Positions 28,029 to 60,672 of a stretch of DNA of 64,000 nt are shown here, one piece after another (within the stretch, counting starts at the first letter, position 1; each line of letters starts with the position of its first letter). Origin of the DNA: Marchantia polymorpha subsp. ruderalis. Lineage: Eukaryota; Streptophyta; Marchantiopsida; Marchantiales; Marchantiaceae. The notes beneath the pieces are model-generated. The model did no database searches. It was not told where the DNA came from and saw nothing but the letters and a program-made list of their open reading frames with translations. The DNA is taken from NCBI GenBank assembly GCA_037833965.1, contig AP031355.1:6659501-6723500 (forward strand). Reading direction: 5' to 3'. The translations under genes were made by a program, and so were the position numbers.

Positions 28029-28998
28029 ACATCTGTAATAACCCACTAAAGGCTAAAACTGCAATATAGTGGTAGAAAGGTCGAACCCACAGGGACAGAG
28101 GAACACACAGGGTACAAAGTGTCACGTTTAACAAACTATTGAGGAGTTTGAATTCTCAGGCGACTGTCACTCCCAGAAATACTGCAAGTGTCCACTCGGA
28201 GCGCACTCGGAGGTCGCACAGTGCAGCGTAACACACACACACACACACACCTGAAACTACAGAAACACAACCCAGAGATCCGTTAGGACCTCTACTCAAG
28301 ATTTCAGGGGGAAAGTCTCTCAAGAGTACACTCAGCGAAGCTGCGGGTAGTGACTCCCAACTCCGGCTTTTACAACACTTCCACTAGCTTGCTGCTAGTG
28401 TAGGAAACCCGGTTTGGACTGCCTACTTCGGATCAAAGTCACTCATACGCGGTGAACAACACTCTCAACTCACAAACGCGCAGAGAACACAGGTCCGCAC
28501 TGAAGAACTCACTGAAAAACATTCCAGTAACACAACAACAGTCTATTGAAGAGTTTGAATTCTCAGGCACTTGTCATTCCCAAAAATACTACAGGGGTTA
28601 CCTCAAAGGCACCTGCGGCAGCGTAACCTGAATTTACAACCAAGGCTTGCACGAAGTAGCAAAACTTCACTTTGGCATTCAGGGGAAAAATCCCGAAGGA
28701 GTACAACCAGAAACAAACACTCGAAGGTGTAGGGGCGAAACTATTCAAGTATCTAACTAGTCACTGGCTCTGAGCATCAACAATCACCCGCAGGTGTAGA
28801 TCCGAACTACTCAAGTCTCTAACCAATGTACTAGCTCTGAACATTCGGCCGAAGGCCTTCAGCTACACAATGCGGAACGCTAAGGTGTAGCTCCTCGTGC
28901 GTGGTGACAGAACTAAGGACACAGAGACGCAGAGAAAATGAGTTCCTGATCTGCACTTCTGAATTTGGGAAAGAACCCAAGGCAAGACGCCTTGAACT

Positions 28999-29006
28999 AT
29001 TTTATA
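28999..29006 (-). promoter_or_regulatory. TATA-type site of E1
   Basis: TATAAAAT in minus sense, followed by a short GGCGTCTTGCC hairpin, at the same relative position (about 1 kb before the 3' end) as in the other four family members. Confidence 0.5.
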
Positions 29007-29042
29007 CCTTCTAAATCCTAACTAGCACTACACTGCACTACG

Positions 29043-29798
29043 CTACACGCCGGCACGGAACCACGCTACACTACACTCCGCGGAACATGTGCTACGTCTC
29101 CTGCGCGACGGACTGCCGCGCACTAACTCCCTACCCTGCCAGTCTTCCGCTCGACTGCGCAGTCCCAACCGCTGCAACGCCGCGGACACCTCCACCTCGA
29201 GGGTGGACATGGTATCCCGCGTCTTCGACAGAAAAGCGTCTAGCTTCTTCGCTACCTTCCGCCGACTCCTGCTGTCGCCTACCAACAACCCTGCTACGCG
29301 AAGTTCAAACTCACGCAGTGTGAGTTTCTCCTGCGCCGCCACTTCCCACTGGGCGTAGCCCTTGAGAGAGTGGGCGACACGCCTCGCCATCTCCTCCTTC
29401 GTGCGATCTGCCTCTCGCCTGCGATCCTCTTCAATTACCACTAACTGCGATTCGGCCTCCGCACGCTGCGCTCTCAATTCACCACACTCTGACTGTAGGA
29501 TTGATACGGTTGAGGATTTCAGTCGCCATTGATTGCGTTGGCGACTGACCCGAGTGGGGCTGCACGTCGTCGACGTGTGCTGCCTGCGAAGGCACCGCTG
29601 CAGCCTCGCTGCTCTTCGCCAAAATGTCCAAGGCGGTGGGCGAATGTGGCCGTGCTGCATCCCTGTCGCCCGCTTGTCGGTCCTCGACCGTATCCTCTCT
29701 GCCGCCGACGTCCGCCGCCGAAGGCGATCGAGCGGAGGGTATCTGCGCGGGGTTTGATTGCGCATCGCGCACCGAAATTTCGTCCCGCGAACAGTCAA
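29043..29798 (-). pseudogene. Broken element-encoded coiled-coil protein (E1)
   Basis: The C-terminal half (about 29500 down to 29050) encodes LREFELR, GDSRSRRKVAKKLDAFL and LQRLGLRSRAEDW, the same domain as in E3 and E4. The N-terminal part lies in another frame (29772-29479), where SPTALDILA and ATEIL match the E4 protein. Between them the roughly 170-residue coiled-coil part present in E4 is missing, so there is a deletion plus a frameshift near 29500. In E4 the same protein is preceded by a long N-terminal domain not seen here. The product would have had no catalytic motif. Confidence 0.8.
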
Positions 29799-30840
29799 TC
29801 CGCTCCTCCGTCAGGTCCTACTCCCTCGATCGGTCCTGCGCGAGGGCTGTGCCTGGCCTGTGCGCAGGCGCAAATGCCGGCGCCTTGTCCGCCGCAGGCG
29901 CAGCGCCGAAGGCGTCTATCGCCAAAGGCGACATAGCCAGGGGCCGCTCGCCCGATGTCCCTTGGCCCGTAGGCCCTACCGCCGAAGGCGCATCTACCGG
30001 CGGACTACCCGCCGATGGTGCGGCCTCCGCACGCTCCCTGCTCGCATCTCCTCGGCCCGAAGGCCCTGGCGCCGAAGGCGCAAATCGCGGCGCGTTGTGC
30101 GCCGGAGGGTCTGGCCCCGAAGGCCTGTGCCCGTAGGCGGATCTTCCGCCGGCTCCTTCCCCTTCCTACGTTGGAACGGGGGTGATTCCTGCCTGTGCGC
30201 AAGCGGCATGTGTGGAGGTGACCTGTGCACATGCGACCTGTGCACAGGCGGACTGCTTCTTCCCACGCGTAGGCGGAGGTCCACGTCCGCTTGTGGTCGC
30301 CTGTCCGTCGAGGCTCGCCTGTGCGCAGGCGGACTCCTCGGCGGATTCTCCGCCGGCGCGGAACTTCACCCGCCTGTGCACAAGCGCTCACCTGTGCGCA
30401 GGCGAAGTCCGTCCACGTCGATGCGCTGGCGCGGAAGGCGTTGACCGCGGTCAACCGACTCCGTCCAGACTGTCCGTTCCTTGTCTCTTTGTCGGCGCGC
30501 TCCGCCGCCGCAACTCCGTCCGTCCAAGAGCGCATCCATCCGTCCCGTCCGTACAGTCCGTACGGTCCGTACGGATTTTACTATTCTGGCGGCTCCTTGC
30601 TCGTCCGTGCTGTTGCGCTGGCGCGGAAGGCGCCGTACAATTTCTACCTCCCAAGGCGCATTTCTAGGGCCCAAGGCGGATTTCCCGCCGACGCCGAAGC
30701 GCCTGTGCACAGGCGCACGCCTGTGCGTAGGCGAACTTTGCGCCTACATCAAAACCCTATTTCGCCTGTGCGCAGGCGAACTTCCTTCGTCCGCGCATAG
30801 GACAAAACTTCTTCGGCTGTGCGTAGGCGAAGAACTGAGT
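29600..30840. repeat. Palindrome array in E1: GCC(TTCG)GC and CCTGTGCACAGG type
   Basis: GCCGAAGGC (minus-sense GCCTTCGGC) recurs many times at about 29720-30130, and GCCTGTGC(A/G)CAGGC type palindromes recur at about 30200-30840. Several long GC-rich frames cross this region on both strands in all phases, as expected from composition, and they are not called as genes. The part at about 30650-30860 is the inverted equivalent of 56512-56690 in E5. Confidence 0.8.
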
Positions 30841-30852
30841 ATCTTACAACCT

Positions 30853-30975
30853 TCATAACTCCCGGAGTCCTCATCCGTTGTTGGCGTTCTTGGGCTCGTT
30901 GGAATCAGCGCGTCGAGCTCTTTCCAACGAGACCCTAACTAGGTCAAGGCATTTGGGGGTTGACCTAAATATGAA
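30853..30975 (-). repeat. Hairpin module, inverted copy in E1
   Basis: Reverse-complement copy of the roughly 120-bp module described under 56110-57516: it begins at CATAACTCC on plus and contains CTCGTTGGAA and TTCCAACGAG arms near 30897-30932. Confidence 0.65.
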
Positions 30976-31430
30976 GGATTTCCCTACCGCCGCGGACGTA
31001 GCGCCGAAGACGGATTTTGCGCCTTGCGCCGTAGGGATCATACCTTCAGAGCTCGCAGGGAGGGTGGTGCCCTTCCTTGACGCTGCACCCAACTCCTAGA
31101 TTCTACGAGGTCCCTCGAGAATCTCTGCGATCTTCCGAATTCACTCTATTTTGATGCACCGAAGGCTATTTACATTGCTACCTTGGTACAGTTTTCCAAA
31201 AATGTTTTATGTGGTAACTCACTTTTTGTTTTTCGCCGGAACTAAAACATTTTTGATTAGTAAGTACCGTGGTAGCAGCTGTAAATAGTAATCGGTACGC
31301 AAAGCCAGAGCAAAAAGAGGATCGAGGACAGTCAAGGGGTTTTGGGCTTAGGCCACAGTGGAACGCTTGGAATGGAACGGGTGGTTCACGCTGTAGGACT
31401 CGCTTCGAGCACCTTCGGCGGTAGATCACT

Positions 31431-32085
31431 CATAACTTCCTCAATTCTTAACGCCTTGAAATACTTAGGGTCTCGTTGGAAAGAACTCAACGCGCTCGTT
31501 CTAACGAGCCCAAGAACGCCTAGAACGGATGAGGACTCAGGGAGTTGTGACTGTCGGAAGATGCAAAGAAGAACGCATACGGATAGGCGGAAGGAGTTCG
31601 TCGTCGGCAGAATATCCACCTTCGGCCCTGGACGTTCGCCTTCCGCGACGGACGTCTTCGGGTCAACTTCAAGTCGGCAAACTCGGAGTCGGAGAACTCG
31701 GGGTTGGCGAACTCGAGGTCGGAGAACTCGGAGTTGGCAAACTTGAGGTCGGCGAACTCGAGGTCAAAGAACTTCAAGTCGGCAAACTCGGAGTCGGCAA
31801 ACTTGAGGTCGGCGAACTCGAGGTCGGCGAACTTCAAGTCAGCAAACTCGGAGTCGGCAAACTTGAGGTCAGAGAACTCGGAGTCGGCGAAACATCGTGC
31901 GGGCGCCTTCGGCGATAACAGATAACAAGCCTTCGACAGTGTGCCTTCGGCGAAGGATAAAACCGGCATAACTCTTTCAACTCGTAACGGTTTGACTCAA
32001 TTAGGATCTCGTTAGAAAGAGCTCGACGAGGTCGTTCCAACGAGCCCAAGAACTCTTGAAACGGATCAAGGATCTGTGAGTTATG
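31431..32085 (+). repeat. Two hairpin modules in E2
   Basis: Copies at 31431-31549 and 31967-32085, both 119 bp by this count. Each begins CATAACT, carries CTCGTT(G/A)(G/A)AA and TTC(C/T)AACGAG arms around a short loop, and ends GAGTT(A/G)TG, which pairs with the beginning. Confidence 0.8.
31668..31890 (+). repeat. 15-bp minisatellite, first block
   Basis: About 15 tandem variants of GAACTCGAGGTCGGC. In one plus frame they read as ELEVG, ELGVG or KLGVG pentads. A shorter block of the same unit is at 32153-32252. Being a multiple of three, the unit keeps all frames open, so the frames are not evidence of a gene. Confidence 0.9.
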
Positions 32086-32152
32086 GGTGTCGGGCGTGAC
32101 TGTTACAAATAGGCAAAGGTGCGGAAGTGCGTCTTCGGCGGTCAACGCCTTC

Positions 32153-32252
32153 GGAGAACTCGGAGTCGGCGAACTTGAGGTCGGCGAACTCGAGGTCGGC
32201 GAACTTCAAGTCAGCAAACTCGGAGTCGGCGAACTCGAGGTCGGCAAACCGA
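32153..32252 (+). repeat. 15-bp minisatellite, second block
   Basis: About six or seven units of the same 15-bp repeat as at 31668-31890, separated from it by a hairpin module. Confidence 0.9.
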
Positions 32253-32422
32253 ATGCGGTTCAGAGATCTTGCGGAGTCCATATCTCTGCGATGGACGGTC
32301 GGATGGATCTGAAATTTGATGGGGCCGTTGATCTCAGTCGGCCACGCATGCCTGCAAATATTCAGCCTCAGATCTCGGATGTAAAGACGCTGGCGGCTCT
32401 GTACAGTAGGCTTAGGATTCAG

Positions 32423-32447
32423 ATTTAGGGTTAGGGTTAGATTTAGG
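32423..32447 (+). repeat. Interstitial telomere-like motif in E2
   Basis: TTTAGGGTTAGGGTTAG followed by ATTTAGG, a short degenerate run of plant telomere units inside the element. An almost identical run lies in E5 at 57891-57916. Confidence 0.75.
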
Positions 32448-32549
32448 TTGTAAGTTAGAGGGGAAGGTAGCCGCCGACTCCTCAGGTGTAGGATCTGTTG
32501 CGGCTCGCACCCTAGCAGGTAGCGTAGTGTTAGTTAGGACCTTAGAGAG

Positions 32550-32556
32550 TATAAAG
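32550..32556 (+). promoter_or_regulatory. TATA-type site of E2
   Basis: TATAAAG followed by a CAAGGCGTTTTGCCTTG hairpin, about 0.9 kb before the element's 3' end, as in E1, E3, E4 and E5. Confidence 0.5.
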
Positions 32557-33506
32557 TAGTTCAAGGCGTTTTGCCCTGGGACTCTTCCAGTTGCGGAAGT
32601 GCAGATAAGGAACTCACTTTCTTGGCGTGTTTGTGCATTTTGGTCCTGGCACCACGTAGAGAAGCTGCAGCATAGCGAAGTTACCGTATGTTGTAGTTGA
32701 AGGCCTTCGGCTGAATGTTCAGAGCTAGCACCCGGTTAGAGACTTGAGTAGTGCGGATCTGCACCTGCGGGTGATTTATGATGCTCAGAGCCGGTTGCGA
32801 GTTAGAGACTTGAACAGTTCCCCCTTACTCCTTCGAGTGACATATCCTGATTGTACTCCTACGGGAAGTTTCCCCTGAATGCCAAAGTGAAGTTTTATTA
32901 CTTCGTGTAAGCCTTGGTTTGCAATTCAGGTTGTGTGTGTGTGTTACTGGATTGTGTCTCAGTTAAGTCCTCAGTCGGGCCTGTACTCCCTGCGTTTGGT
33001 GTGAGTCGAGGGTGACGTCCACGGCGTATGAAGAGGCTTCGTTTCGAAGTGGGAAGTCCAGTCCGGGTTCCCTACGCTAGTTCCTGGCGGAAGGGCAGTA
33101 AAAGCCGGAGTGGGAGTCACTACCTGCAGAACCTCTGAGTGAACTTTTGAGACACTTTCCCCCTGAAATCCGAAGCGGAGGCCCTGACCGACCTCCGAGT
33201 TGTGCTTTTGCCAGTTTCAGGTGTGTGTGTGTGTGTGTTGAGTGACTACGCTGTACTGTGCATCCTCCGAGCATCCTCCGAGTCGAGCATCCTCCTCCGA
33301 GTCGAGCACTGCAGTATTTCTGGGAGTGACAGTCGCCTGAGAATTCAAACTCTACAAAGTCTGTTAAACGTGACACTTTTTACTCTGTGTGTTGCCTCTG
33401 TCCCTGTGGGTTCGATCTTTTTACCACCATACTGCAGTTTTAGCCTTTGGTGGGTTATTACATTTTAGTTTCCTCAAAATTACCAAAAGTGAGGTACCAC
33501 AACATC

Positions 33507-34484
33507 CTTGATTCACTGTGATATATATCGAGAGATGGCGTATTTCAAACAGTCCTGCGAGAGCGTACTATTTCCGTTTGACTGCTTCTTTGCTTGTGTA
33601 TGGGTGTTGCTTTCGTTTCTTTGATTATGTTACTTCAGATTTGAACACTATATTCATCCTGCAAATGTTCATACCTCCATTTATGGAGATTTATTTGCAG
33701 ACACATGTTTTTTGTTTTGATATTTATTTGTTGAGCTTCACATGCATTGTTATTGGACTTTTTACTGAGAAAAAAATGACATGAACAATCTGCCCAAACA
33801 TAAGAAAGTCAACTACATATTGAACTTTAAACCAAACCTACAAGATTTGAAACTCAATCTTTTTACCATCTTCATACTATGAGTTCAATCATTTTGATAT
33901 CTTAAAATTGATACAATTCACTTATGTTATAGAATCAATTTCTGCAGCTTTCGAATAATCTTCAGTATGAACAATCTTGATGTCAAATAGTTAAAAGATG
34001 GACGAGGAAAAAGTTTTAGCTCTTGCAAATACACAGAAGAGTACACAATATTTCATAATAAGAAATAACTTCCGCATTTAGTTCCATGCATATACTACGC
34101 TTATGCTACGTCCACAACAACCATGTCTTTATTGAAAAACTACAAAAATGTTTATTACAAGCTATGATACTTCTTTTTATATGAAAACAAGATAGTGAAT
34201 TTTTTAATCCTAATCTTAAATCGTACTAAACCTAGATCTGACTATTACTTAAGTTTGATGAATTGGAGTTCAAAGCAAAACTTGAGTTAATATTAATGAT
34301 ATTTACTTCATTTTTTCTCCTCACTTATCTTATCTCTTAAATTTTGAAATTAATCATCAAATGCATAAATTTAATCTTGTATTATCATGCTAGATGTTTT
34401 CATTTTCAATTTCATCAACCTCAATAAAGCATACAAGTTGTAAGACAACAAATCGTTGCTCAAAAACCCCAAACAGCAGAGTAC
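33507..34484. other. AT-rich region between E1 and E3; no gene recognised
   Basis: Only short AT-rich frames (88 residues at 33518-33784, hydrophobic by composition). No motif recognised. Confidence 0.45.
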
Positions 34485-34823
34485 AAGTGTGTGGTAACCC
34501 ACCTTCTGTTTTTGTGCGGAATTAAAACATTTTTGGATAACAAGTACCACAGCAGCAACTGTAAATAGTAATCGGTACATAAAATAGATTGAAAAGGAGG
34601 ATCGCGGGTCACGGAGAATCCAGGAGTTGGGAGGGGCCAAAACCGAGGTCCGGCGCTTTGTTCGGCGCCGAAGGTTCCTACTGGGGAGAGCGCCTTCGAC
34701 GCCTTTGGCAACATCTCCTTTGCTGAGGTGTCTTCGGCGCAGGAGAAGTGTGGGGAGTAGCCTCGGCTCAAGGGCCTTTGGCTCAGAGGACTTTGGGTCA
34801 GATGCCTTCGGCGCAGACCCAAC

Positions 34824-35966
34824 TTGAGGAATCGGCCAAGGACGAAGGCCGGAAGGAGGAGACACGTGTGCCTTCAACACTGTCGCCTTCGGTGGTTGCA
34901 GATCGGGCAGGAGAAGCGGGGCCCGCCGGAAGCCAGATCTCCCACCGCGTTGGAGATCTTAGCAGGGAGTGGAGCGGCGGTCGCAGGAGCAGAAGCCACG
35001 CGACCCAGTTCCAGGGAATCGCCGAGGATTTTTGTGGCGACAGAGATCCTCGACTCAGATCCGAACTCAGAGGATGAGTCGAGTTCGGAAGGGCAGGAAG
35101 TGGAGTCGGTGCAAGGCACGTCAACAGGAGTGTTGTGCGAGCAGGTGGTACCACTATTGCGGTACCTTGATCGCAAGGAGTAGAAGTATGCTGATCCCCG
35201 CCATCGGGGATCCTACGTCGAGTTGGTGAGGAATCGGACGCGAATCAAAGTCGCGACGAATCCTATATTGATTTCCTTGGACCGCCAGTGCAGAGAGTTG
35301 AAGGAGAAGAACGATGTCCTGCACAGACATTTTACACTCTCGCGGAAACTGCAGAAGGTAGTACTAAAGCTGCGCGATGACGCAGCAGCCAAGGCCCAGA
35401 GCGAATTTGCGAAGCAGCGCGCACAGATCAAGGCCGAGCTCCATTTGGAGCAAATTCAGAATAGCACCTTGATAGAGGAGCTCGTGCGGCAGACGCGGTT
35501 GCTGGAGCAGTGTCAGATCGCAAGCAAGGCAGATGAAGAGTTAGTGTGTCGCCTGCAATCGCAGTGCGACGAATTGAGAGCGTAGCATGCGGATGCGGAG
35601 CTGCAGTTAGTGGAGTTTGAAGGCAGCAACCGGCGCGCGACAGATCGCACGCGTGAGGAGTTAGTCACGCGCGTGAATCAGCGTCTGAGAGGTTACACTC
35701 ATTGGGAGGTGGTAGCGCGAGAGAGAGTCATCTTGCGCGAGTAAGAGATTCGTGCGGCGGCCTTGATGTCGGGTGACAGTCGGAGCCGGCGGCGAGTGGC
35801 GAAGCGGTTAGATTCATTCCTGGCGAGGTTGCGAGACGCCATTGCGAACCTCGGGGCAGAGGTGACCGCGGTGTTGCGGCGGCTGGGATTGCACAGTAGG
35901 GCCGAAGACTGGTCGGGTAGGGAGACAGTGCGCGGTCGACCTTCGCACAGGAGGCATAGCAGATGA
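34824..35966 (+). pseudogene. Broken element-encoded coiled-coil protein (E3)
   Basis: Three successive open pieces match the second half of the E4 protein: 34824-35183 (SPTALEILAGSGAAVAG, ESPRIFVATEIL, GVLCEQVVPLLRYLDRK), 35223-35585 (heptad-like Leu/Glu/Lys coiled coil, ending QSQCDELRA) and 35763-35966 (GDSRSRRRVAKRLDSFL, LRRLGLHSRAEDW). Stop codons at 35183, 35585 and near 35742, with a frame change, separate them. The roughly 400-residue N-terminal domain of E4 is missing. No enzyme motif is visible; a structural role is only a guess. Confidence 0.85.
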
Positions 35967-36010
35967 CGTGTAGCGTAGAGTAGAGTGTTAGGTAGTTAGG
36001 ACTTAGAAGG

Positions 36011-36017
36011 TATAAAG
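36011..36017 (+). promoter_or_regulatory. TATA-type site of E3
   Basis: TATAAAG followed by TCAAGGCGTCTTGCCTTG hairpin, 0.9 kb before the 3' end of E3. Confidence 0.5.
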
Positions 36018-36940
36018 TATTTCAAGGCGTCTTGCCTTGCGGATTTTTGAGTTTCGGAAGTGCAGTTCAGGAACTCATTCTCTCTGCGTGTTTGTGTCCT
36101 TACATTTGTCACCGGGCAAGAGGAGCTACAGCTTGACGAAGTTACCGCATTTTGTAGCTGAAGGCCTTCGACCGAATGCTCAGAGCTAGTGAAGTCTGGT
36201 TAGAACTTGAGCAGTTCGGACTTACACCTTCGGGTGATTGTTCATGTTTGTACTCCTTCGGGATTTTTCCCCCTGAATGCCAACGTGAAGTTTTGTTACT
36301 TCGAGTAAGCCTTGGTTAACAATTCAGGTTGTACGCTGCTTGAGGTGCCTTCAGGGGTAGCCTCCACAGTATTTCTGGGAATGACTAGTGCATGAGAATT
36401 CAAACTCGTCAATAGACTGTTATGGTGTGACACTGGATCTTTTCTCAGTTGAGTTTCTCAGTTCGGTTCCTGTATTCTCTGCGCGTTTTGTGAGTTGAGT
36501 GTGTTGTTCACCGCGTGAGAGTGACTTTGGTTTGACGAAGGTACCGCATCCGAAGTAGGATGTCCAACCGGGTGCTCTGCTCTAGCAGTCAGAGTTAACA
36601 ATCCGGAGTTGGGGAACAGTACTTGCAGATTCTCTAAATGTACTCGTGAGAAACTTTCACCCTGAATCTTAAGTAGAGGTCCTAATCGGCCTCTGAGTTG
36701 TGCTTTTCCAGTTTCAGGTGTGTGTTGGGGTGAGCTACGCTGCACTTTGCATCCTCCCAGTGACCTCCGAGTTGAGCACTTGCAATATTTCTAGGAGTGA
36801 CAGTCGCCTGAGAATTCAAACTCTTCAATAGTCTGTTAAAACGTGACATTTAGTACTCTGTGTGTTGACTCTGTCCCTGTGAGTTTGACCTTTTTGCTGC
36901 TATACTGCAGTTTTAGCCTTTGGTGGGTTATTACAAAGTG

Positions 36941-38100: not shown

Positions 38101-38512
38101 ATCAATTTTGCTAAATCTTGGTTTGAGAGTTTTCATATATGGCATTTTAGGCTAGGGTCATAAATAATATGTAAATGTTATTTTTTCATGATAAAAGTTT
38201 GTTATGAGGCAAAATTAAAGTTGATATAGAATTCTTTGAACATTGTATTTTACACAAGCATCATGATCAAGCCTTTGCTGTTGATATTCATAACTTTAAG
38301 TAATTACTTGACTGCGTAAAAAAATACTCTCAAGAAAACTCACTCCCTGAAAAAATATATTTTTTATACTTATTGATTAAGATTTTTGTGAGATTATTTT
38401 TTCACACACAAATTTGAAGTTTTTATAGATCTTAAAAAGTGAAAAATTTAAATTGAAAATCAAAGAAGACAAAAATTCTTATGAGCAGTTTCAAAGTTAT
38501 CAAAGTTAAGTT

Positions 38513-41010: not shown

Positions 41011-41041
41011 ATTGTGATTGTCACGAATTCGTAAACTCTAG

Positions 41042-49690: not shown

Positions 49691-49724
49691 ATCCAACCGC
49701 TCAGGGATCAATAGACCAACCATG

Positions 49725-50809: not shown

Positions 50810-50829
50810 TTCCAAGAGTGTGAGAGTAC

Positions 50830-51850
50830 AAGTTTTAAGATAAAATAATAGTAATTGCTATATAATAGCTATTAGATAAGTATAGATTAGGACTGAAATC
50901 TATGGAATTATTGTTCGTGAACAAAAACTAACTAAGTGAATTCTTTATAGTCACATTATTTATTTGTTCATATTTGGAGTTGGTGGATTTGAGTTGAATC
51001 CACTTTGGAGTTGCTGCCAGAGTTCCATATCTTCGGTCCGAAGCTTGGTGATCTTCAAGCGCATCATGGAGAAGAAACTTAAGAAACCTCCTTGATGGAG
51101 TAAAGGGTTCCATAAGCAATGTTTTTGAAGACAAGATCATCCAAAAAAAAAATGAAATATTTTGCGTAGAAATACGCGATGGAAACACTCTTGTTGTTGG
51201 ATTTTTCCAGAAATCAACTTGCTAGAGAACTATCAACAGATTTAGACATGTTGCATATTAATGATCAATAACAAGTTCAAGTAATCTATGTTTGCCAAAT
51301 TGTTAAAATTTATTGACATATCAGATCTGGATTTATTTGCTGATCAACTTTCGGATCCATTCCTTGTGTTAGTGAGCAAATCGGCTTGAGTTATTTCAAT
51401 TTATTGTTGAATTAACCATGCCAATTCACTCCAATTGTAAATTCATTTGACACATGCTTTTCAAGATTTTTCCGCTGGGAAATACAAAACTATGTGGAGA
51501 TTTTCTTAAAATAATTTGGAATTCTTTTGCTTTTAGTTGCGGTGATGATCTTCATCTTCATACTGTCATTGAATGGACAAATTTGTGAAGTTTGTATTTT
51601 CATGATGTGTCCATGATGGCATTTGCAATAGTAACTTTACTTGGATGTACAACTATAATAGACTAATCATTATGATTCCAACCTTGAGAGACATGTTTTT
51701 ATTTTAACAACATTGAACGGTGCATAATGCTTAGTCTAATTACAGTATCTTTCAACGGTTATAAACATTTTTAGTTATTTAGAATAAAGTAGATGTTACT
51801 CTAAATGTTCATATAGATATTTTAGCGTCCACTAGTTATAATCTAATATC
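50830..51850. other. AT-rich DNA, no gene recognised
   Basis: Only short frames; nothing further of the gypsy element was recognised. Confidence 0.45.
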
Positions 51851-51854
51851 ATGT

Positions 51855-52125
51855 TAGTGATCCGTGCGCTTGGTAAGTAGAGACTATATTTTGTTAGTTG
51901 ATAATGTCACGTCAAAGATCAGCTTGCTTGTTAAGTAGAGAGTATGTTTTGTTAGTTGACAGTTTCACGTTAGAGATTCGCGTGCTTGTTAAATAGAGAG
52001 TATGTTTTGTTAGTTGACAATTAAAATGTCCATATCAGTGATCCGCGTATTTGTAAAGTAAAGATTGAGTGTGTTAGTTGGTAGCGTCACCTAAGCAATC
52101 CGTGTGCTTTTTAGAGTTATCCGTC
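51855..52125. repeat. Tandem repeat, about 58 bp, five diverged units
   Basis: GATCCGTGCGCTTG-like starts at about 51859, 51917, 51975, 52040 and 52096. Each unit carries TAAGTAGAGAxTAT, GTTAGTTG and a GTCACGT block. The last two units are most diverged. Confidence 0.75.
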
Positions 52126-52731
52126 ACGTTATCTATCCACTAGAACTGATATGAATGGTGGGGATAAAATCTTATCTTTTTGTACTTATTGATATGAATT
52201 ATATAAGTAAGAATAGAAACATGGTTGGTATCTCTCATCTTTAGAACTTATTTTTTTTATACTCTTTAACAATGATTGAATCTTATCTACCACATGCAAA
52301 GAGCACTAAACAATGATAAACTATACAATATGAAATAATTTCAAAATGTCATTTTATATTATGTGTGGTAACACACTTTTTGTTTTTTTTGCAGAATTTA
52401 AACAATTTTAGAAAACTAGTACCAAAGCAGTGTTTGTAGCTAGAGAAGGGTACGCTAAATAGAGTGGATTGATGAGATCGTCACGAGGGCACAAAGAATC
52501 ACGTAGTCGGATGTACCAACGCCAACGTCTTCGACGCCTTCGGCAAAAGCTCCTTTTTTGAGGTGTCTCTACTCACGCGCCTCCAGCGTATAAGGAAGCT
52601 ACGCTTCCGGCGCAGACACCTCAGGAGGAGGTTTTGCTAAAGACGTCAGGAGAAGGGCCCGGACCTCTAAAGGCGTCCGACCATGAGTGCGCCTTCGGCG
52701 AAGCGCCGCTAGCGCGGAAAGGGGAAACTTT

Positions 52732-52850
52732 CATAACAATCGGGATACACGGTAGATCCAGTTGGTTGAGGTTGCATTAGAAAGAGCTCGGGACGCTCGT
52801 TCTAACGAGTCCAAGAGCGTCGGAGATGGATCAGGAATGGAGAAGTTATG
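52732..52850 (+). repeat. Hairpin module in E4, most diverged copy
   Basis: Begins CATAACAATC, has GCATTAGAA and TTCTAACGAG arms and ends GAAGTTATG. Located before the protein gene. Confidence 0.6.
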
Positions 52851-53722
52851 AGCATCGGAAAACTCGTAGCCGGACATGCGCCGTTCGCGCTAGGGTTCAC
52901 AGCCGGAAAGGATTCCCGTACGCCCTCGGCGATGCGCCTTCGGCGGAATCACGCGCTCATAGGAGGAAACCAACTCAGAGTCGGAAGCGCCTTTGGCGGC
53001 TGTTCATGGAAGGAACGCGCCGGTCGGATGTACGCCTCCGACGTGGCGCTGACGGCCGGATGCGCTGGCATGAGTTGCGCCGACAGATATGCGCCGGCAG
53101 CAACGGACGAGGCATAAAGGACAAAATAGGCGGTACGACTGCGCGCCGGCGTAATTCGCTCCGACTGGATGTGCGCCTCCAGCAAGGCGCCGACGGATAA
53201 TGAACGCACCAGCGGCGACACGCCTCCGGTGAGGGACGGGTCAGGAAAAGACAACAGGGCCGACGTATACCCTGCAGCGGACTCGAGTCCGGAAGGTGGC
53301 GGCGGCGGGAGAATTCAACGTTTAAGCATGCGAATGCGCGCAGTGCGGAGACGTGAATTCGCGCATGCAAAGGGCGAACCGTTAAGCCGTATAGCCGGCT
53401 GCGTACGTTGCAACCAGTAAGAACGTTGGACGTTCTTGAAATCGGAGAAGAAAAGACTGCGCTCCAGTCTCATTCTCTCATTCTTGACTTTGCGATTTCC
53501 AGTTTCCAAGATTACGCGCAAGGGCGGAGCGACCTGCAGTGAGAGTAGAGAGTGCGGAGACGAGTTGCGCAAGGATCTTGGCGGACCTTGAAAGAATTGT
53601 GAGTAGCGATCTTGAACGAGCGCAGAAAGAGTGAGCAGTCAGTGCTTGAGTGGCCGACGCGCAGTGGCGATTGTGAGAGAGCGAGCGAAAGGGAGAACGC
53701 TTGTGTGTGTGCAGGCAACGCG

Positions 53723-55138
53723 ATGTCGAAGGTTCCCCAGCTGCGAGTGTCTCCACTCAGGGTGCCGCAGATCGGTCTACGCGCATTTCAGGATGTGCTG
53801 CTGAGGCTGAAGCTCGATTTTCTCCTATGGGGGTGGAACTGGACATGTCCGGAGATGGTGCGCGAGTATCTGCAAGAGAGACACAAGCCCTCTCGCGGAT
53901 TCCGCCCGCACCCAGAGAGATGGGACATTTGCAATTGGGCGCAGGTGTTGGGCAGGTGTGCCGGCGAGGAAGGGGATCTCCTCTTCGAGGCCGATAGCGT
54001 GAAGGTGTCCCAGGAGGAAGAAGTCTCTTACAATGAGCTCTTCAAAGTGGCCAGACATCCCAAGAACGGTTTCCGGACACGGGATTACAAGGATCGATTA
54101 CGGAGAAATGTCGCGACGGCATTGCTGCAGATATTGCAGCCGACCAAGACCGCTTACATGCATGGTTGGCAGGTAGAGTTTGTGGAGCTAGTGTTGTCAG
54201 GAGCTCCGGTGCATTGGGCACGGCTCCTGTGGAAGGTGACGCGCCAACATGCGCAAGAAGAGAAGGGAGGAACCCTCAATCATCTATCGCCTTACTTAAT
54301 CGTGTTTTACCGGGCGATGGGATGTTTGACGAATGTTGAGAAAACTCGGTTTCCGCAGCTGACCCGGACTTATCCAGGTAGATATTCGAGGGAGGCCGAA
54401 GTAGACACGGATTCGGACGAGGAACCTGCCAGTACGCCTCCGGCTCCGGCTCCAACAAGAGCAGCAGAAGAACGTCGAAGTGAGCGCATTCCGCGAAAGC
54501 GGAAGTGGGATGAGAGACCTGAGGACAGGCAGCCGGAAGTGCCAGCTGCGCCGACTCATGGTCGGCCCACCCCCGAGCCTCACAGTCGACCAAAACAGAG
54601 GGCACGCAAAATGCCAACTGTTACTGAGGAGACCAGGCGAACTCCGACCCGGCGGAATCTCACGCAGGAAGAGATAATCGCTCAGATTCTAGGGAAGACG
54701 GCAGATACCTCTGCACAGAAGGCACCACGGCCTTCGAGAGGAGATGGACGGACTGACAGTCGGCCGACTGCGAGTCGGATGACTGAAGGCCGACAAGCGG
54801 AAGGAAGGCCAACTGAACGGCGCGTTGAACCGGACAGCAGGCCGGAAGCAGAAGAGAGTTTGGCTGACGAGCCAACAATCCTCAGAGGGTCGTCTTCGGC
54901 GGAAGGCACTTCCGGAAGAACGCCACCAGCAAGCAGGCCAAGTGGAGTCAAGACGCGCAGGGTGTATCCGACTCCCAGTCGGACAACTGCTGGTCGGCCG
55001 ACTGCGAGTCGGACAACAGAGAGTCAGCCGGATTCGCCGACTGCGAGACGGATGGGGCCAACGACCAGTGTGCGGACGCCTTTGGCGGACGCACCTTCAG
55101 CAAGGACGCCTCCCGCGCAGATTGCGCCGGAAGGATAG
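53723..55138 (+). CDS. Element protein, N-terminal part up to an in-frame TAG (E4)
   Basis: 471 residues from the first ATG; the frame is open about 110 bases upstream without ATG. Residues about 10-215 are a globular domain (RLKLDFLLWGWNWT, GFRPHPERWDICNWAQ, HGWQVEFVELVLSGAPVHWA, LSPYLIVFYRAMGCLT) whose pattern resembles domains called putative plant transposon proteins. I know similar hypothetical proteins from Marchantia, but this is memory, not a search. From about 230 it is disordered, rich in Arg, Pro, Thr and Glu, with repeats of (R)PTASR and SRTTxxxP. No zinc knuckle, protease or catalytic motif is visible. The TAG at 55136-55138 is the only break before the second half, which is in the same frame. 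Confidence 0.7.
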   Translation: MSKVPQLRVSPLRVPQIGLRAFQDVLLRLKLDFLLWGWNWTCPEMVREYLQERHKPSRGFRPHPERWDICNWAQVLGRCAGEEGDLLFEADSVKVSQEEEVSYNELFKVARHPKNGFRTRDYKDRLRRNVATALLQILQPTKTAYMHGWQVEFVELVLSGAPVHWARLLWKVTRQHAQEEKGGTLNHLSPYLIVFYRAMGCLTNVEKTRFPQLTRTYPGRYSREAEVDTDSDEEPASTPPAPAPTRAAEERRSERIPRKRKWDERPEDRQPEVPAAPTHGRPTPEPHSRPKQRARKMPTVTEETRRTPTRRNLTQEEIIAQILGKTADTSAQKAPRPSRGDGRTDSRPTASRMTEGRQAEGRPTERRVEPDSRPEAEESLADEPTILRGSSSAEGTSGRTPPASRPSGVKTRRVYPTPSRTTAGRPTASRTTESQPDSPTARRMGPTTSVRTPLADAPSARTPPAQIAPEG

Positions 55139-55897
55139 GCAGCAGAAGCGGGCGGTGCAAGAGTGACAAAAGTCACTGCGGCGTCGACCCCTTCACAAAC
55201 CGAAGATCGAGCCGGAACAGGGGCTCAAGCAGTGGGATCTCCCACTGCCCTGGATATTTTAGCAGGCAGTGGAGCAGCAGTCGCAGCGGAAGCTGCTGTG
55301 CGCCACAGTTCCAGGGAGTCGCCAAGAGATTCGGTGGCGACTGAAATCCTCGAGACTGAGGATGAAACGAGCTCGGAAGAGCAAGAAGCGGATTCGGTGC
55401 AGAAAACGCCAACAGGGGTGCTGTGCGAACAGATAGTTCCACTCCTGCGATATCTAGATCGCAAGACATCCAAATACGCAAGTGCTTTAAAACCGCAGTC
55501 TTATGTGGAGACTATCAGGAGAAGGACGAGGAGCAAGGTGGCAAAGTGGGCCTCTAGGTGCGGAGTATATGTGGATAGGAACACCGCCCTCCGACAACAC
55601 CTGGCGGTCACCGAAAAGCTATACCAAGCCTTGCAGCAGCAGAAGGAGGATGCGGCGACGAAAAGTCAGGCGGATGCCGAACTAATACGGGCAAAGATCG
55701 AGTCGGAATTGCAGGAGGAGCGGAGACAGAACCAAGTCCTAGCAGCCGAGCTTGCGCGCCAGACGCGCGCCTTAGAAGAAAGTCAAAGAGCCTGCAAGGA
55801 GGATGAGGAGTTGTTGTGCAACTTGCAATCCGAGTGCTCGGATTTGAGGGCACAACGTGCGGGTTTAGAAATGCAGCTGGCCGAGGTGAAGAGCAGC
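55139..55897 (+). pseudogene. Element protein, coiled-coil part after the TAG, cut by E5
   Basis: Continues the frame of 53723-55138 directly after TAG. It has no ATG of its own near the start. Contents: SPTALDILAGSGAAVA, SRESPRDSVATEIL, GVLCEQIVPLLRYLDRK, then a long coiled coil (about 55600-55897) rich in Glu, Gln, Lys, Arg and Leu with CNLQSECSDLRAQRAGLEMQ. The frame runs into E5 at 55898. Homologous stretches are found in E1 and E3. Confidence 0.85.
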
Positions 55898-56109
55898 TGT
55901 GGTAACCCACTTTTTGTTTTTTATCGGAACTAAAACATTTTTGAATAGTAAGTACCGCGGCAGCAGCTGTAAATAGTAATCGGTACGCGAAACCAGAGGA
56001 TCGAGGACAGTCAAGGGGTTTTGGGCTTAGGCCACAGTGGGACGCTTGGGACGGAACGGGCGGTTCATGCTGCAGGATCCGCTTCGAGCACCTTCGGCGG
56101 TTGATCACT

Positions 56110-57516
56110 CATAACTTTCTCAATTCGTAACGCCTTGAGTTGCTTCGGGTCTTGTTGCAAAGAGCTCGCGACGCTCGTTCTAACGAGACCAAGAACTTGT
56201 GAAACGGATGAGAGGTCACTGAGTTATGAGTGTCGGAAGTTACTGATGGGGGGGGCCTTCGGCGGTAGAGCGACTTTGGCGGTACGCCTTCGGCGGAAGA
56301 ACCGCCGGAAGATGCGCCTTGGGCGGTAGACGCCTTCGGTCAACGCCTTCGGAGATACGGGAGAGTGCATTCGGCGGAAGAGTGAAACCCTCATAACTTT
56401 CTCAATGCGCAACGCCTCGACATGGTTAGGGTCTCGTTGGAAAGAGCTCGACGCGCTGATTCTAACGAGCCCAAGAACGCCACGAACGGAGTAGAATTCC
56501 GGGAGTTATGAAGGTCGCAAGATACTCAGATTTCCGCCTGTGCACAGGCGAAGAAAGTTTTGTCCTATGCGCGGACGAAGGAAGTTCGCCTGCGCACAGG
56601 CGTTCGCCTGTGCACAGGCGCTTCGGCGTCGGCGGGAAATCCGCCTTGGGCCCTAGAAATGCGCCTTGTGAGATAGAAAGTGTACGGCGCCTTCTGCGCC
56701 AGGTCATCGCCGCGGACGGACAAGTCAGCGCCGCGGACGGCCAGGTCAGCGCCGCAGACAGCCAGGTCATCGCCGCGGACGGACTGTGGATAGGCGAACG
56801 CCTTCAGCGGAATGGTAAAACCGACATAACTTTCTCAATTCTTAGCGGTTTGACTTGATTCGGGTCTCGTTGGAAAGAACTCGACGAGCTGGTTCCAACG
56901 AGACCAAGATCTCTTGAAACGGATGAGGCATCACCGAGTTAGAAGCGGCGGAAGTTTCTGATATGGAGGGCCTTCGGTGCTAACATTTAGAGGGGCCTTC
57001 GGCGTTAACACTTAGAGAGGCGGCTTACGCCGCGGACGCCTGTGCACAGGCCGTCCGCCTGTGCACAAGTAGGCGGCCTGTGCACAGGCAGGCCTTCGGC
57101 GGAAGGGTAAAATTGACATAGTGTTTTCAATTCTTAATGGTTTGCGGTGGTTAGGGTCTCGTTGGAAAGAGCTCGCGACGCTCGTTCCAACGAGCCCAAG
57201 AACGCCTGGGACGGATGGGAATTTAGGGAGTTAGGACTATCGGAAGATACGTAGACGTTCTCCTTCGGCCCTAGATGTTCGCCTTCGGGGTTACGCTTCC
57301 GGGAATTCCGCCTTCGGAGGTAGGGAGATCGACTTTTGTCCGATGCGCGGACGGACGCCTTCGACGGTTGCAGGCCTTCGGCGGAAGAGTAAAACAGTGA
57401 TAACTTTCTCAATTCTTATCCGTTTGACTTGGTTAGGGGCTCGTTGGAAAAAGCACAACACGCTCGTTCTAACGAGCCCAAGAACGTTGCAAACGAAGCA
57501 AGGATCCGTGAGTTAT
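56110..57516 (+). repeat. Five hairpin modules in E5
   Basis: Copies at 56110-56228, 56392-56510, 56824-56944, 57117-57236 and 57398-57516. Consensus features: CATAACTTTCTCAATTCTTA, a spacer, GGTCTCGTTGGAAAGAGCTC, a short loop, CG(A/C)TTC(C/T)AACGAGxCCAAGA, then AACGGAT and a closing GAGTTATG. The ends pair with each other and the core arms CTCGTTGGAA and TTCCAACGAG pair inside. Spacers between modules are CCTTCGG or GTGCAC palindromes. Confidence 0.85.
56240..57400 (+). repeat. CCTTCGG hairpins and GTGCAC palindromes of E5
   Basis: GCCTTCGGCGG type sites near 56253, 56288, 56327, 56345, 56995, 57090 and 57372; GCCTGTGCACAGGC type palindromes near 56536, 56597, 57040 and 57073. In RNA the first would be C(UUCG)G tetraloops. 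No gene is called. Confidence 0.8.
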
Positions 57517-57890
57517 GGGCGTCGGGGTGACTGTTAGAGATTGACAAGGTGTGGAAGTGCGTCTTTGGCGGTTGGACGCATTCGGCGGTGCGCGGAAGGA
57601 GATTTCCTCCGGCGAGGATCGGGTGGTCATGAATGTAGAATGTTCAGGTGTGGCAGTGGCGGCTTGCGTGTAGGACGCGTGGGACCCACAGTCCTCGGAT
57701 TTTGGAGAAGGAATTTTGGCCTAGGTTCAGAGATCTTGCGGGGCCCATATCTTTGCGATGGACGGTCGGATGGATCTGAAATTTTGTGGGGCCGTTGATC
57801 TCGGCCGGCCACGCATGCCTGCAAATTTTCAGCCTCAGATCTTGGGTGGGAAGGCGCTGGCGGCTCTGTACAGTAGGCTTAGGATTCAGA

Positions 57891-57916
57891 TTTAGGGTTA
57901 GGGTTAGATTTAGGTT
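57891..57916 (+). repeat. Interstitial telomere-like motif in E5
   Basis: TTTAGGGTTAGGGTTAG and a further ATTTAGG, same setting as in E2 (32423-32447). Confidence 0.75.
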
Positions 57917-58018
57917 GTAAGTTAGAGGAGAAGGCAGCCGCCGACTCCTCAGGTGTGGGATCTGTTGCGGCTCGCACCATGGCGTGGTGCAGTGTAGTGC
58001 TAGTTAGGACTTAGAAGG

Positions 58019-58026
58019 TATAAAAT
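58019..58026 (+). promoter_or_regulatory. TATA-type site of E5
   Basis: TATAAAAT followed by CCAGGCGTTTTGCCTGG hairpin, about 970 bp before the element end and pointing into the remaining part of the E4 gene. Confidence 0.5.
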
Positions 58027-58993
58027 AGTTCCAGGCGTTTTGCCTGGGGTTCTTTCCCATCAGAAGTGCAGATCAGGAACCCATTTCCTTTGCGTGTTTG
58101 TGTCCTTGAGTTCTGTCACCACGCACGAGGAGTTACAACTTAGCGTTCCGCATTTTGTAGCTGAAGGCCTTCGGCCGAATGTTCAGAGCTAGTACATTGG
58201 TTAGAGACTTGAGTAGTTCGGATCTGCACCTGCGGGTGACTGCCGATGCTCAGAGCCAGTGACTAGTTAGATACTTGAACAGTTTCGCCCCTACACCTTC
58301 GAGTGTTTCTTTCTGATTGTACTCCTTGGGATTTTTCCCCTGAATGCCAAAGTGAAGTTTTGCTACTTCGTGTAAGCCTTGGTTGTAAATTCAGGTTACG
58401 CTGCAGCAGGTGCCTTGAGGGTAACCCCTGTAGTATTTCTGGGAATGACAAGTGCCTGAGAATTAAAACTCTTCAATAGACTGTTGTTGTGTTACTGGAA
58501 TGTTTCACAGTGAGTCCTTCAGTGCGGACCTGTGTTCTCTGCGCGTTTTGTGAGTTGAGAGTGTTGTTCACCGCGTAGGAGTGACTTCGATCCGAAGTAG
58601 GCAGTCCAAACCGGGTTTCCTACACTAGCAGCAAGCTAGTGGAAGTGTTGTAAAAGCCGGAGTTGGAAGTCACTGCCCGCAGCTTTGCCGAGTGTGCTCG
58701 CAAGAGACTTTCCCCCTGAAATCTTGAAGTAGAGGTCCTAACGGATCTCTGGGTTGTATTTCTGTAGTTTCAGGTGTGTGTGTGTGTGTGTTACGCTGCA
58801 CTGTGCGACCTCCGAGTGCGCTCCGAGTGGACACTTGCAGTATTTCTGGGAGTGACAGTCGCCTGAGAATTCAAACTCATCAATAGTCTGTTAAACGTGA
58901 CACTTTGTACCCTGTGTGTTCCTCTGTCCCTGTGGGTTCGACCTTTCTACCACTATATTGCAGTTTTAGCCTTTAGTGGGTTATTACAGCAGC

Positions 58994-59374
58994 TGCAGGG
59001 CGCGAGGAGAGTTGGCGGCACAGGTGACTCGTTGTCTAAAAGGATACGCCCATTGGGAGGTGGCAGCTCAAGAGAGGATTACACTCCGGGAGTTCGAGCT
59101 TCGGGCGGCGGCATTGACGGAGGGTGACAGTCGGAGTCGGCGGCGAGTGGCGAGAAAATTAGAAACCTTCTTGTCGGGTGCGCGCGACACTATGGCGCAC
59201 TTGCAGTCGGAAGTCACCACAGCGCTCCGACGCCTGGGGTTACACAGCCGGTCGGAAGACTGGCAAGGTAGAGATAGTAAGCGGAGCAGTCCGGCGCGCA
59301 GGAGGCGCAGCACCGGATCTGCTGAGTGCAGTAGAGTAGTTTGGTTTCGCGCAGATGCTGCGAGTGGTAGATAG
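58994..59374 (+). pseudogene. Element protein, C-terminal part after E5 (E4)
   Basis: Begins at the codon after the GCAGC duplicate and keeps the frame of 55139-55897. Contents: LKGYAHWEVAAQERITLREF, GDSRSRRRVARKLETFLSGA, LRRLGLHSRSEDW and a basic tail. The same C-terminal domain (about 125 residues) is the best conserved part in E1 and E3. Stop at the TAG ending at 59374. Confidence 0.85.
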
Positions 59375-59407
59375 GATAGCGTAGTGCTTGTTAGGATCTT
59401 TTGAGAG

Positions 59408-59414
59408 TATAAAG
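59408..59414 (+). promoter_or_regulatory. TATA-type site of E4
   Basis: TATAAAG followed by a CAAGGCGTTTTGCCTTG hairpin, 0.9 kb before the family 3' end at 60339. Confidence 0.5.
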
Positions 59415-59747
59415 TAGATCAAGGCGTTTTGCCTTGGGACTCTTCCAGTTTCGGAAGTACAGATCAGGAACTCACTTTCTTGGCGTGTTTGTGCATTTTG
59501 GTCCTGGCACCACGTAGAGAAGCTCCAGCATAGCGAAGTTACCGTATGTTGTAGTTGAAGGCCTTCGGCTGAATGTTCAGAGCTAGTACCCGGTTAGAGA
59601 CTTGAGTAGTGCGGATCTGCACCTGCGGGTGATTTCTGATGCTCAGAGCCGGCTGCGAGTTAGAGACTTGAACAGTTCCCCCTTACTCCTTCGAGTGACA
59701 TATCCTGATTGTACTCCTACGGGAAGTTTCCCCTGAATGCCAATGTG

Positions 59748-60046
59748 AAGTTTCATTACTTCGTGTAAACCTTGGTTTGTAATTCAGGTTGTGTGTGTGT
59801 TACTGGATCGTGTTTTCAGTAAGTTCTCAGTCGGGTCTGCACTCCCTGCGTTTGGTGTGAATGTCGAGGGTGACGTCCACGGCGTATGTAGAGGCTTCGT
59901 TCCGAAGTGGGAAGTCCAGTCCGGGTACCCCCGCTAGTTCCTGGCGGAAGGGCAGTAAAAGCCGGAGTGGGAGGCACTACCTGCAGAACCTCTGAGTGAA
60001 CTTGCGAGACACTTTCCTCCTGAAATCCGAAGCGGAGGTCCTGACC
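59748..60046 (+). repeat. 299-bp segment, first copy
   Basis: Nearly identical to 60341-60639, same length, differing at only a few bases (for example GAATGTC against GATAGTC). The first copy is in its normal place in the 3' block of E4. Confidence 0.9.
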
Positions 60047-60340
60047 GACCTCCGAGTTGTGCTTTTTGCCAGTTTCAGGTGTGTGTGTGTGTGTGTGTGT
60101 GTGTTGAGTGACCAAGCTGTACCGTGCATCCTCCGAGCATCCTCCGAGTTGAGATCCTCCTCCGAGTCGAGCCTCCGAGTCGAGCACTGCGGTATTTCTG
60201 GGAGTGACAGTCGCCTAGAATTCAAACTCTACAAAAGTCTGTTAAACGTGACACTTTTACTCTGTGTGTTGCCTCTGTCCCTGTGGGTTCGATCTTTTTA
60301 CCACCATACTGCAGTTTTAGCCTTTGGTGGGTTATTACAT

Positions 60341-60639
60341 AAGTTTCATTACTTCGTGTAAACCTTGGTTTGTAATTCAGGTTGTGTGTGTGTTACTGGA
60401 TCGTGTTTTCAGTAAGTTCTCAGTCGGGTCTGCACTCCCTGCGTTTGGTGTGATAGTCGAGGGTGACGTCCACGGCGTATGTAGAGGCTTTGTTCCGAAG
60501 TGGGAAGTCCAGTCCGGGTACCCCCGCTAGTTCCTGGCGGAAGGGCAGTAAAAGCCGGAGTGGGAGGCACTACCTGCAGAACCTCTGAGTGAACTTGCGA
60601 GACACTTTCCTCCTGAAATCCGAAGCGGAGGTCCTGACC
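60341..60639 (+). repeat. 299-bp segment, second copy beyond the canonical end of E4
   Basis: Direct duplicate of 59748-60046 placed one base after the canonical element end at 60339. It runs straight into the hairpin at 60624-60664. Confidence 0.9.
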
Positions 60640-60664
60640 AGCGGCGCTGGTCAGGACCTCCGCT
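60624..60664. repeat. Perfect 19-bp hairpin at the junction of E4 and AT-rich DNA
   Basis: AGCGGAGGTCCTGACCAGC at 60624-60642 and its exact complement at 60646-60664 with a GGC loop. The right arm is an inverted copy of the end of the 299-bp segment. Confidence 0.9.
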
Positions 60665-60672
60665 CCGTTATG

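What the first reader, a model, noticed from the sequence alone, without database searches (positions are those of the whole stretch)
28029..60672. A family of GC-rich elements with TGTGGTAACCCAC...GTGGGTTATTACA ends, 5-bp TSDs and an unusual protein
Five members (E1-E5) share both ends and generate 5-bp target duplications (ACATC, TTTTA, AAGTG, GCAGC and probably TTATG). The ends are an imperfect 13-bp inverted pair. No member has internal repeats of its ends, so none is a normal LTR-internal-LTR element, yet three carry a coiled-coil protein with a plant-transposon-protein-like N-terminal domain, and none shows a recognisable polymerase, integrase or transposase. Two readings are open: solo copies of a giant LTR with an ORF in its U3 part, or a TIR element moved by an integrase-like transposase (TGT...ACA ends with 4-6 bp TSDs are known for Ginger-type elements).
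Basis: partly seen in the sequence, partly recalled or inferred. Interest (0 to 1): 0.75.

Follow-up and report, generated by a model that had tools for sequence, protein, structure and literature searches.

The report
Solo LTRs carrying their own gene
The five repeats are lone end-copies (solo LTRs) of an abundant Ty3/gypsy retrotransposon, almost certainly of the liverwort Marchantia, and they are unusual because the end repeat itself carries a gene that selection has kept.

Summary
In detail: E1-E5 share both ends and have 5-bp duplications. The genome (C1 has exactly the length implied for Marchantia polymorpha chrU) holds 1129 exact junctions of the element's 3' end with a primer-binding site that matches its tRNA-Asp perfectly, and ~15.5-kb LTR-gag-pol-LTR units: of 10 candidates checked, 5 have perfect 5-bp TSDs, 3 do not (two of these sit in tandem arrays), and in 2 an end was not found. 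The internal part is Ty3/gypsy gag-PR-RT-RH-INT; no chromodomain or second RNase H was found. So E1-E5 are solo LTRs. The odd part is real: the 4.87-kb LTR carries a ~850-codon sense ORF (N-terminal domain without Pfam match, long coiled coil) that ends ~33 nt before a conserved TATA box. It thus appears to lie in U3, between polypurine tract and promoter, so reverse transcription copies it into both LTRs. It is under purifying selection (dN/dS 0.10-0.17 in the N-domain, median 0.24 at the C-terminus), and divergent relatives also carry it. No transcript was tested. The 'plant transposon' domain is not supported. A new variant of a known kind; I infer a trans-acting accessory protein.

The parts
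28034..33501 (-). E1, solo LTR (net about 3.2 kb), interrupted by E2; TSD ACATC at 28029-28033 and 33502-33506
31210..33462 (+). E2, solo LTR of 2253 bp without the ORF, rich in a GC-rich minisatellite; TSD TTTTA
34490..36935 (+). E3, solo LTR of 2446 bp with a broken C-terminal part of the ORF; TSD AAGTG
52364..60339 (+). E4, solo LTR (net about 4.88 kb) interrupted by E5; colinear with the 3' LTR of full-length locus B, 90.3% over 3540 nt up to E5
60340..60667 (+). aberrant extension of E4: 299-nt repeat of its own tail (99.0%) plus a 19-nt foldback; TTATG follows at 60668-60672
55898..58988 (+). E5, solo LTR of 3091 bp without the ORF, nested in the ORF of E4; TSD GCAGC
53723..55135 (+). 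LTR ORF in E4, N-terminal domain (53723-54382, protein P0001) and low-complexity middle; a stop codon stands at 55136-55138
55139..55894 (+). LTR ORF in E4, coiled-coil part, same frame, up to the E5 insertion
58991..59371 (+). LTR ORF in E4, C-terminal part after the E5 insertion, to its stop codon
29046..29498 (-). C-terminal part of the LTR ORF in E1
59408..59413 (+). conserved TATA box of the LTR of E4, about 33 nt after the ORF's stop and 932 nt before the LTR end

Best explanation
E1-E5 are solo LTRs of a high-copy Ty3/gypsy LTR retrotransposon without detected chromodomain. A complete element is about 15.5 kb: LTR (4.87 kb), 22-23 nt spacer, PBS for tRNA-Asp(GTC), about 5.8 kb internal region filled by gag-PR-RT-RH-INT, polypurine tract, LTR. 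LTR-LTR recombination removed the internal part and left the copies of the window (inferred; the TSDs fit). The LTR carries a sense ORF of about 850 codons: a ~220-residue N-terminal domain of no known family, a low-complexity linker, and a long coiled coil. The ORF stops ~33 nt before the conserved TATA box, so it lies in U3, downstream of the polypurine tract. In the genomic RNA it would be the last gene after pol (inferred), and because it lies downstream of the plus-strand primer, reverse transcription copies it into both LTRs, so each solo LTR keeps it. Shown here: LTR-internal-LTR structure, PBS, PPT, TSDs, presence of the protein in the LTR, purifying selection. Inferred: TSS, expression, function. 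I think the protein most likely forms rod-like oligomers that act in trans for the element (RNP or particle assembly, or regulation/anti-silencing), like other accessory ORFs of plant Ty3/gypsy elements.
For: LTR structure: loci A, B; Pfam gag, zinc knuckle, protease, RT, RNase H, integrase; 1129 exact LTR-PBS junctions, control 0; of the 150 best-scored N-domain copies, 34 same-strand neighbour pairs 9.5-11 kb apart, 30 of them at 10,618-10,668 bp; controls 0 on opposite strands and 0 at neighbouring distances; 5 of 10 candidate units with perfect TSDs, 15,446-15,544 bp. PBS: (31 exact tRNA 3' ends; 2 of 2 fetched are tRNA-Asp GTC). Solo LTRs common: 425 of 2326 exact 3' ends are followed by the PBS. 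ORF in the LTR: 87% identity in B's 3' LTR; coiled-coil part 88% in both LTRs of B; 29 of 30 PBS-junction loci carry the C-terminal part upstream of the LTR end; all on C1, 22 distinct. U3 placement. Selection: 6 of 10 pairs with finite dS: dN/dS 0.10-0.17; other frames 0.98-1.89; median 0.238 over the 103 of 153 pairs with 0<dS<1.5. Coiled coil: (helix 29-204, pLDDT mostly above 90).
Against: No transcript, protein or phenotype was examined. 3 of 10 candidate units lack a TSD and in 2 of 10 an end was not found. The TATA box is a motif match; the divergent 3.5-kb relative nested in locus A shows none near its tail and L097 none at all, so the U3 placement is shown for one family only. E2 and E5 lack the ORF and still spread, so the ORF is not needed in cis. 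The open frames come from the best-scored 150 of 7937 candidates and are biased towards intact copies. 3 of 103 C-terminal pairs have dN/dS above 0.6. In loci A and B themselves neither element is complete with both canonical outer ends; two-LTR units with TSDs rest.
Confidence: 0.9

Rival explanations
1. TIR DNA transposon of Ginger type, moved by an integrase-like transposase, with E1-E5 as non-autonomous copies.
For: The ends form an imperfect inverted pair and TSDs are 5 bp.
Against: The ends occur as direct-repeat LTRs around gag-pol with PBS and PPT. Short inverted TGT..ACA ends are normal for LTRs.
Confidence: 0.01
2. The LTR ORF is a captured passenger without function that persists because LTRs are duplicated and homogenised.
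For: E2 and E5 lack it; E3, E4 and the B copy carry stops. Solo LTRs decay.
Against: dN/dS 0.10-0.17 and median 0.24 across diverged copies, other frames 0.98-1.89; N-domain relatives at about 40% identity in another LTR family.
Confidence: 0.06
3. The ORF is read from the 5' leader of the genomic RNA (R/U5 or a start far upstream), not from U3.
For: No transcription start was mapped. A promoter without a TATA box upstream of the ORF cannot be excluded.
Against: TATA box conserved after the ORF in E1-E5 and B, none (TATA[AT]A) in the first 1.36 kb of the E4 and B LTRs.
Confidence: 0.15

Closest known systems
Plant Ty3/gypsy elements with additional sense ORFs between pol and the 3' LTR (aORF-3S; review PMC7264820, first third read)
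   Same: Extra sense gene after pol in a Ty3/gypsy element, present in many copies of the family
   Different: Here no ORF of this kind lies in the internal region; it lies inside the LTR, beyond the polypurine tract, so it is doubled in each element and kept by solo LTRs. The part of the review that I read places additional ORFs in the internal region.
Mouse mammary tumour virus LTR with sag/naf in U3 (PMC9412291, passages)
   Different: Retrovirus of an animal; no sequence relation was tested or is implied. Placement only.
Retrosat2/RIRE3/RIRE8 of rice (PMC3485330, passages)
   Same: Ty3/gypsy elements with LTRs above 3 kb and an extra ORF (ORF0) of unknown function that evolves faster than pol
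   Different: ORF0 lies upstream of gag-pol, outside the LTR
OTA superclade: Athila, Tat/Ogre, Retand (PMC6317226, passages and section 13; PMC11963269, passages)
   Same: Non-chromoviruses with LTRs up to about 5 kb, extra ORFs, tandem repeats, tRNA-Asp among the primers used
   Different: No second RNase H (the Tat mark) and no Athila ORF-1, plant mobile or Transposase_28 domain found by Pfam; extra ORF in the LTR. No RT tree was made.

Membership tests
LTR retrotransposon | direct long repeats flanking an internal region | tested here: met
LTR retrotransposon | short target-site duplication at the outer LTR ends | tested here: met
   5 of 10 units perfect, 3 not, 2 with an end not found; window copies
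LTR retrotransposon | PBS complementary to a tRNA 3' end, and polypurine tract before the 3' LTR | tested here: met
   the PBS starts 22-23 nt after the LTR, not next to it
Ty3/gypsy | domain order protease, RT, RNase H, integrase | tested here: met
   (locus B; RT also in locus A)
Chromovirus | chromodomain at the integrase C-terminus | tested here: not met
   none in the one integrase C-terminus scanned (locus B)
Tat (OTA) | additional RNase H domain | tested here: not met
   only the RT-linked RNase H in the frames of locus B scanned
Athila (OTA) | position in RT/RH/INT trees | not tested
   no reference sequences at hand; Athila ORF-1 domain not found in the LTR ORF, but the paper reports it in only 16% of Athila elements
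Ginger/TIR DNA transposon | single transposase between terminal inverted repeats, no LTR pair | tested here: not met
PF20167 Transposase_32 (putative plant transposon protein) | profile match of the N-terminal domain | tested here: not met
   no hit at E up to 1 and 5; no candidate in the genome, but no control rang
U3-encoded accessory gene (placement as in MMTV sag) | ORF between LTR start and transcription start | tested here: inconclusive
   TATA box ~33 nt after the stop codon; start not mapped

The most novel reading that the evidence does not exclude
A plant Ty3/gypsy lineage has moved its accessory gene across the polypurine tract into U3 and kept it there through the divergence of several families. 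Every insertion therefore carries two copies, and recombination to a solo LTR, which normally kills an element, leaves a complete gene next to its own promoter. The many solo LTRs would then be a dispersed gene family whose coiled-coil protein acts in trans on the remaining full-length elements, for example in assembly, copy-number control or release from silencing.
Probability: 0.3. Interest if true: 0.8.

Novelty: new variant of a known kind. Interest (0 to 1): 0.6.

Why it matters
Solo LTRs are usually treated as dead, non-coding relics. Here the LTR is a protein gene under selection, so solo LTRs are gene copies and repeat annotation that calls them 'unknown' or GC-rich repeats would miss a protein family. 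Marchantia is a standard laboratory plant, so transcription start, protein and effect of the LTR gene can be tested directly. It also gives a clear mechanism by which a retrotransposon doubles an accessory gene: placing it downstream of the polypurine tract.

Tried and rejected
Rejected: TIR/Ginger reading; 'plant transposon' domain; homology of the N-domain with the element's gag (probability 0.1%); a relative in solved structures (best E 0.62). NCBIfam gave no hit for the N-domain and only weak ones to coiled coils for the rest.

Led nowhere: AlphaFold2 of the N-domain, pLDDT 43, so no fold search was run; the C-terminal model is a single long helix and a fold search would only return coiled coils, so none was run. 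The viral-contig search with alignment A1 was not possible, so a viral origin of the domain was not tested. Folding the LTR-PBS spacer alone gave no single stable hairpin across the variants. RT lineage was not placed in a tree. Paper searches for an LTR-borne ORF in plants listed no such report by title or abstract; only open PubMed Central papers are held, and most of the listed papers were not opened.

Left out of counts: only loci whose 3' end lay on the forward strand were read (16 of 30). In one search four of ten pairs had saturated dS. In one search, 50 of 153 pairs were outside 0<dS<1.5. One search used a wrongly typed pattern (one G missing), a pattern with one C too many; both were corrected.
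Full report
What is in the window. The five elements are as described. E1 lies on the minus strand and is split by E2; E4 is split by E5. TSDs ACATC, TTTTA, AAGTG and GCAGC are perfect. E4 begins after TTATG, but its canonical 3' end at 60339 is followed by a 299-nt repeat of its own tail (99.0%) and a 19-nt foldback that ends at 60667, and TTATG follows at once. I read this as insertion of an aberrant reverse-transcription product (inference). Protein pieces are in E1, E3 and E4, not in E2 and E5.

The genome. The genome has 241,466,482 bases in 9 contigs. In the MarpolBase paper (PMC13078153, passages) the joint assembly MpTak_v7.1 minus MpTak1_v7.1 leaves 5,591,195 bp for chrU, exactly the length of contig C1. 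The total in that table for Tak-2 is 241,484,302 bp, 17,820 more than here. I conclude that this is Marchantia polymorpha Tak-2, with high but not complete confidence.

LTR or TIR. There are 1189 exact 5' ends (control 2) and 2326 exact 19-nt 3' ends (control 0). Of 16 forward-oriented 3'-end loci read, 2 were followed at once by a PBS-like sequence. The two loci fetched around them, A and B, show a copy of the unit, a 5.7-kb internal region and a second copy whose start follows a purine tract. Frames of locus B match Pfam gag, zinc knuckle, aspartyl protease, RVT_1, RNase H, integrase H2C2 and rve; RVT_1 also in A. The exact LTR-PBS junction occurs 1129 times (control 0). With the 19-nt 3' end it occurs 425 times, against 2326 such 3' ends in all, so many exact 3' ends belong to solo LTRs or fragments; assuming one 5' and one 3' LTR per element, about 1476 of 2326 (rough, exact matches only).

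Full-length units. A search with the 220-residue N-domain of E4 (P0001) gave 7937 first-look candidates, of which the best 150 were scored. Among these 150, 34 same-strand neighbours lie 9.5-11 kb apart, 30 of them at 10,618-10,668 bp; there are 0 such neighbours on opposite strands and 0 at 7.9-9.4 or 11.1-12.6 kb. For 10 such pairs I fetched both presumed outer ends: 5 of 10 have perfect 5-bp TSDs and are 15,446-15,544 bp long; 3 of 10 have none, of which one is flanked on the left by the purine tract and one on the right by the PBS leader, that is, they sit in tandem arrays; in 2 of 10 an end was not found in the piece fetched. For one unit, LTR start and LTR-PBS junction give an LTR of 4868 bp.

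Primer. The PBS TGGCGCCGCTGCCGGGGA is the exact complement of the 3' end (with CCA) of 31 genome matches; the two of them that I fetched are tRNA-Asp with anticodon GTC by ARAGORN. The PBS starts 22-23 nt after the LTR end in the loci, which is further than the 'adjacent' position described in PMC6317226 (section 13 read). I have no explanation for this.

The LTR gene. E4 is colinear with the 3' LTR of B, 90.3% over 3540 nt. The E4 protein matches B's 3' LTR at 87.0% over 486 residues; the coiled-coil part matches both LTRs of B (88.4% and 88.8%). In B's 3' LTR the frame from the ATG to the end is 851 codons with one internal stop; E4 also has a stop, between its two parts. Of the 150 best copies, 113 have an open frame of at least 800 codons; as these are the best-scoring copies the share is biased upward. 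Of 30 PBS-junction loci, all on C1 and 22 of them distinct, 29 carry the C-terminal part upstream of the LTR end, 22 of the 29 without a stop in the aligned piece.

Place of the gene in the LTR. A TATA box (GTATAAAGTAG or close) stands 913-973 nt before the LTR end in E1-E5 and in B's 5' LTR and is conserved in the alignment of 25 distinct LTR tails. In B's 5' LTR it starts 33 nt after the stop codon. No TATA[AT]A occurs in the first 1.36 kb of the E4 and B LTRs. So the ORF appears to lie in U3. This is a motif argument; no start was mapped. In the 3.5-kb relative nested in locus A the only such motif is inside the ORF, and L097 has none, so I claim U3 for this family only.

Selection. On the ungapped 220-codon N-domain of five copies (E4, B, A, L010, L029; that the last two lie in complete LTRs was not shown), the 6 of 10 pairs with finite dS have dN/dS 0.10-0.17; in the two other frames the 20 values are 0.98-1.89. 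For the C-terminal part of 18 copies the median is 0.238 over the 103 of 153 pairs with 0<dS<1.5, range 0.12-1.49, 3 above 0.6. RT and gag between A and B give 0.04 and 0.10 with dS near 2. The LTR protein is thus constrained, less than RT.

Relatives. Elements nested in A and B (about 3.5 kb; ends TGT..ACA, TSD GATGT in A by eye) carry N-domain relatives at about 40% identity. Their 3' end joined to the same PBS occurs 7 times, 5 of 7 on C1. In the one such locus fetched, a broken N-domain relative (48% to E4) lies upstream of the LTR-PBS junction, but DNA similarity to the nested element was limited to 143 nt at the LTR end. So an LTR-borne relative of the gene seems shared by more than one family.

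The protein. No Pfam match for the N-domain at E up to 5, weak sub-threshold coiled-coil matches for the rest; no PF20167 candidate (without a working control). AlphaFold2 failed on the N-domain (pLDDT 43) and gives one long helix for the C-terminal part.

Mechanism. Shown: LTR retrotransposon, PBS, PPT, gag-pol, solo LTRs with TSDs, protein under selection in the LTR. Inferred: since the ORF lies between the polypurine tract and the promoter, it is the last gene of the genomic RNA and is copied into both LTRs in each round; each solo LTR keeps it. What the protein does is open; trans-acting assembly or regulation is my guess from the coiled coil and from what is proposed for other accessory ORFs (PMC7264820, first part read; PMC11963269, passages).

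Comparison. Plant accessory ORFs in the papers I read in part lie in the internal region. A gene in U3 is known from MMTV (PMC9412291, passages). Five paper searches listed no plant element with an LTR-borne gene by title or abstract; the library holds open papers only. I therefore rate it a new variant of a known kind.

Noticed in passing
window 60340-60672: E4 has a 328-nt extension after its 3' end, a 99% repeat of its own tail and a foldback, flanked by the TSD: looks like an aberrant reverse-transcription product that was integrated.
   Followed up: partly
L047-L076, LTR-PBS junctions: The PBS starts 22-23 nt after the LTR end (17-18 nt in the relative); the spacer carries AAGAAG..CTTCTT arms. 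Unusually long and unexplained.
   Followed up: partly
G000 C5 and C7 (places): Triplets of the LTR gene at 10.66-kb steps indicate tandem LTR-internal-LTR-internal-LTR arrays.
   Followed up: no
G000 C1 (places): The same series of element hits recurs at steps of about 366-393 kb on C1, suggesting large duplicated blocks on this chromosome.
   Followed up: no
L043:1-3618 (-): A different Ty3/gypsy-like polyprotein with an open frame of 1206 codons lies next to locus B.
   Followed up: no
window 6230-7248, 17803-18481, 23727-24746: Three copies (86-95% identity, mixed orientation) of a segment; one holds a 191-codon open frame (23947-24522). Possibly a small gene family.
   Followed up: partly
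window 31665-32252 (E2): GC-rich minisatellite units inside ORF-less LTRs, which may have replaced the ORF region.
   Followed up: no
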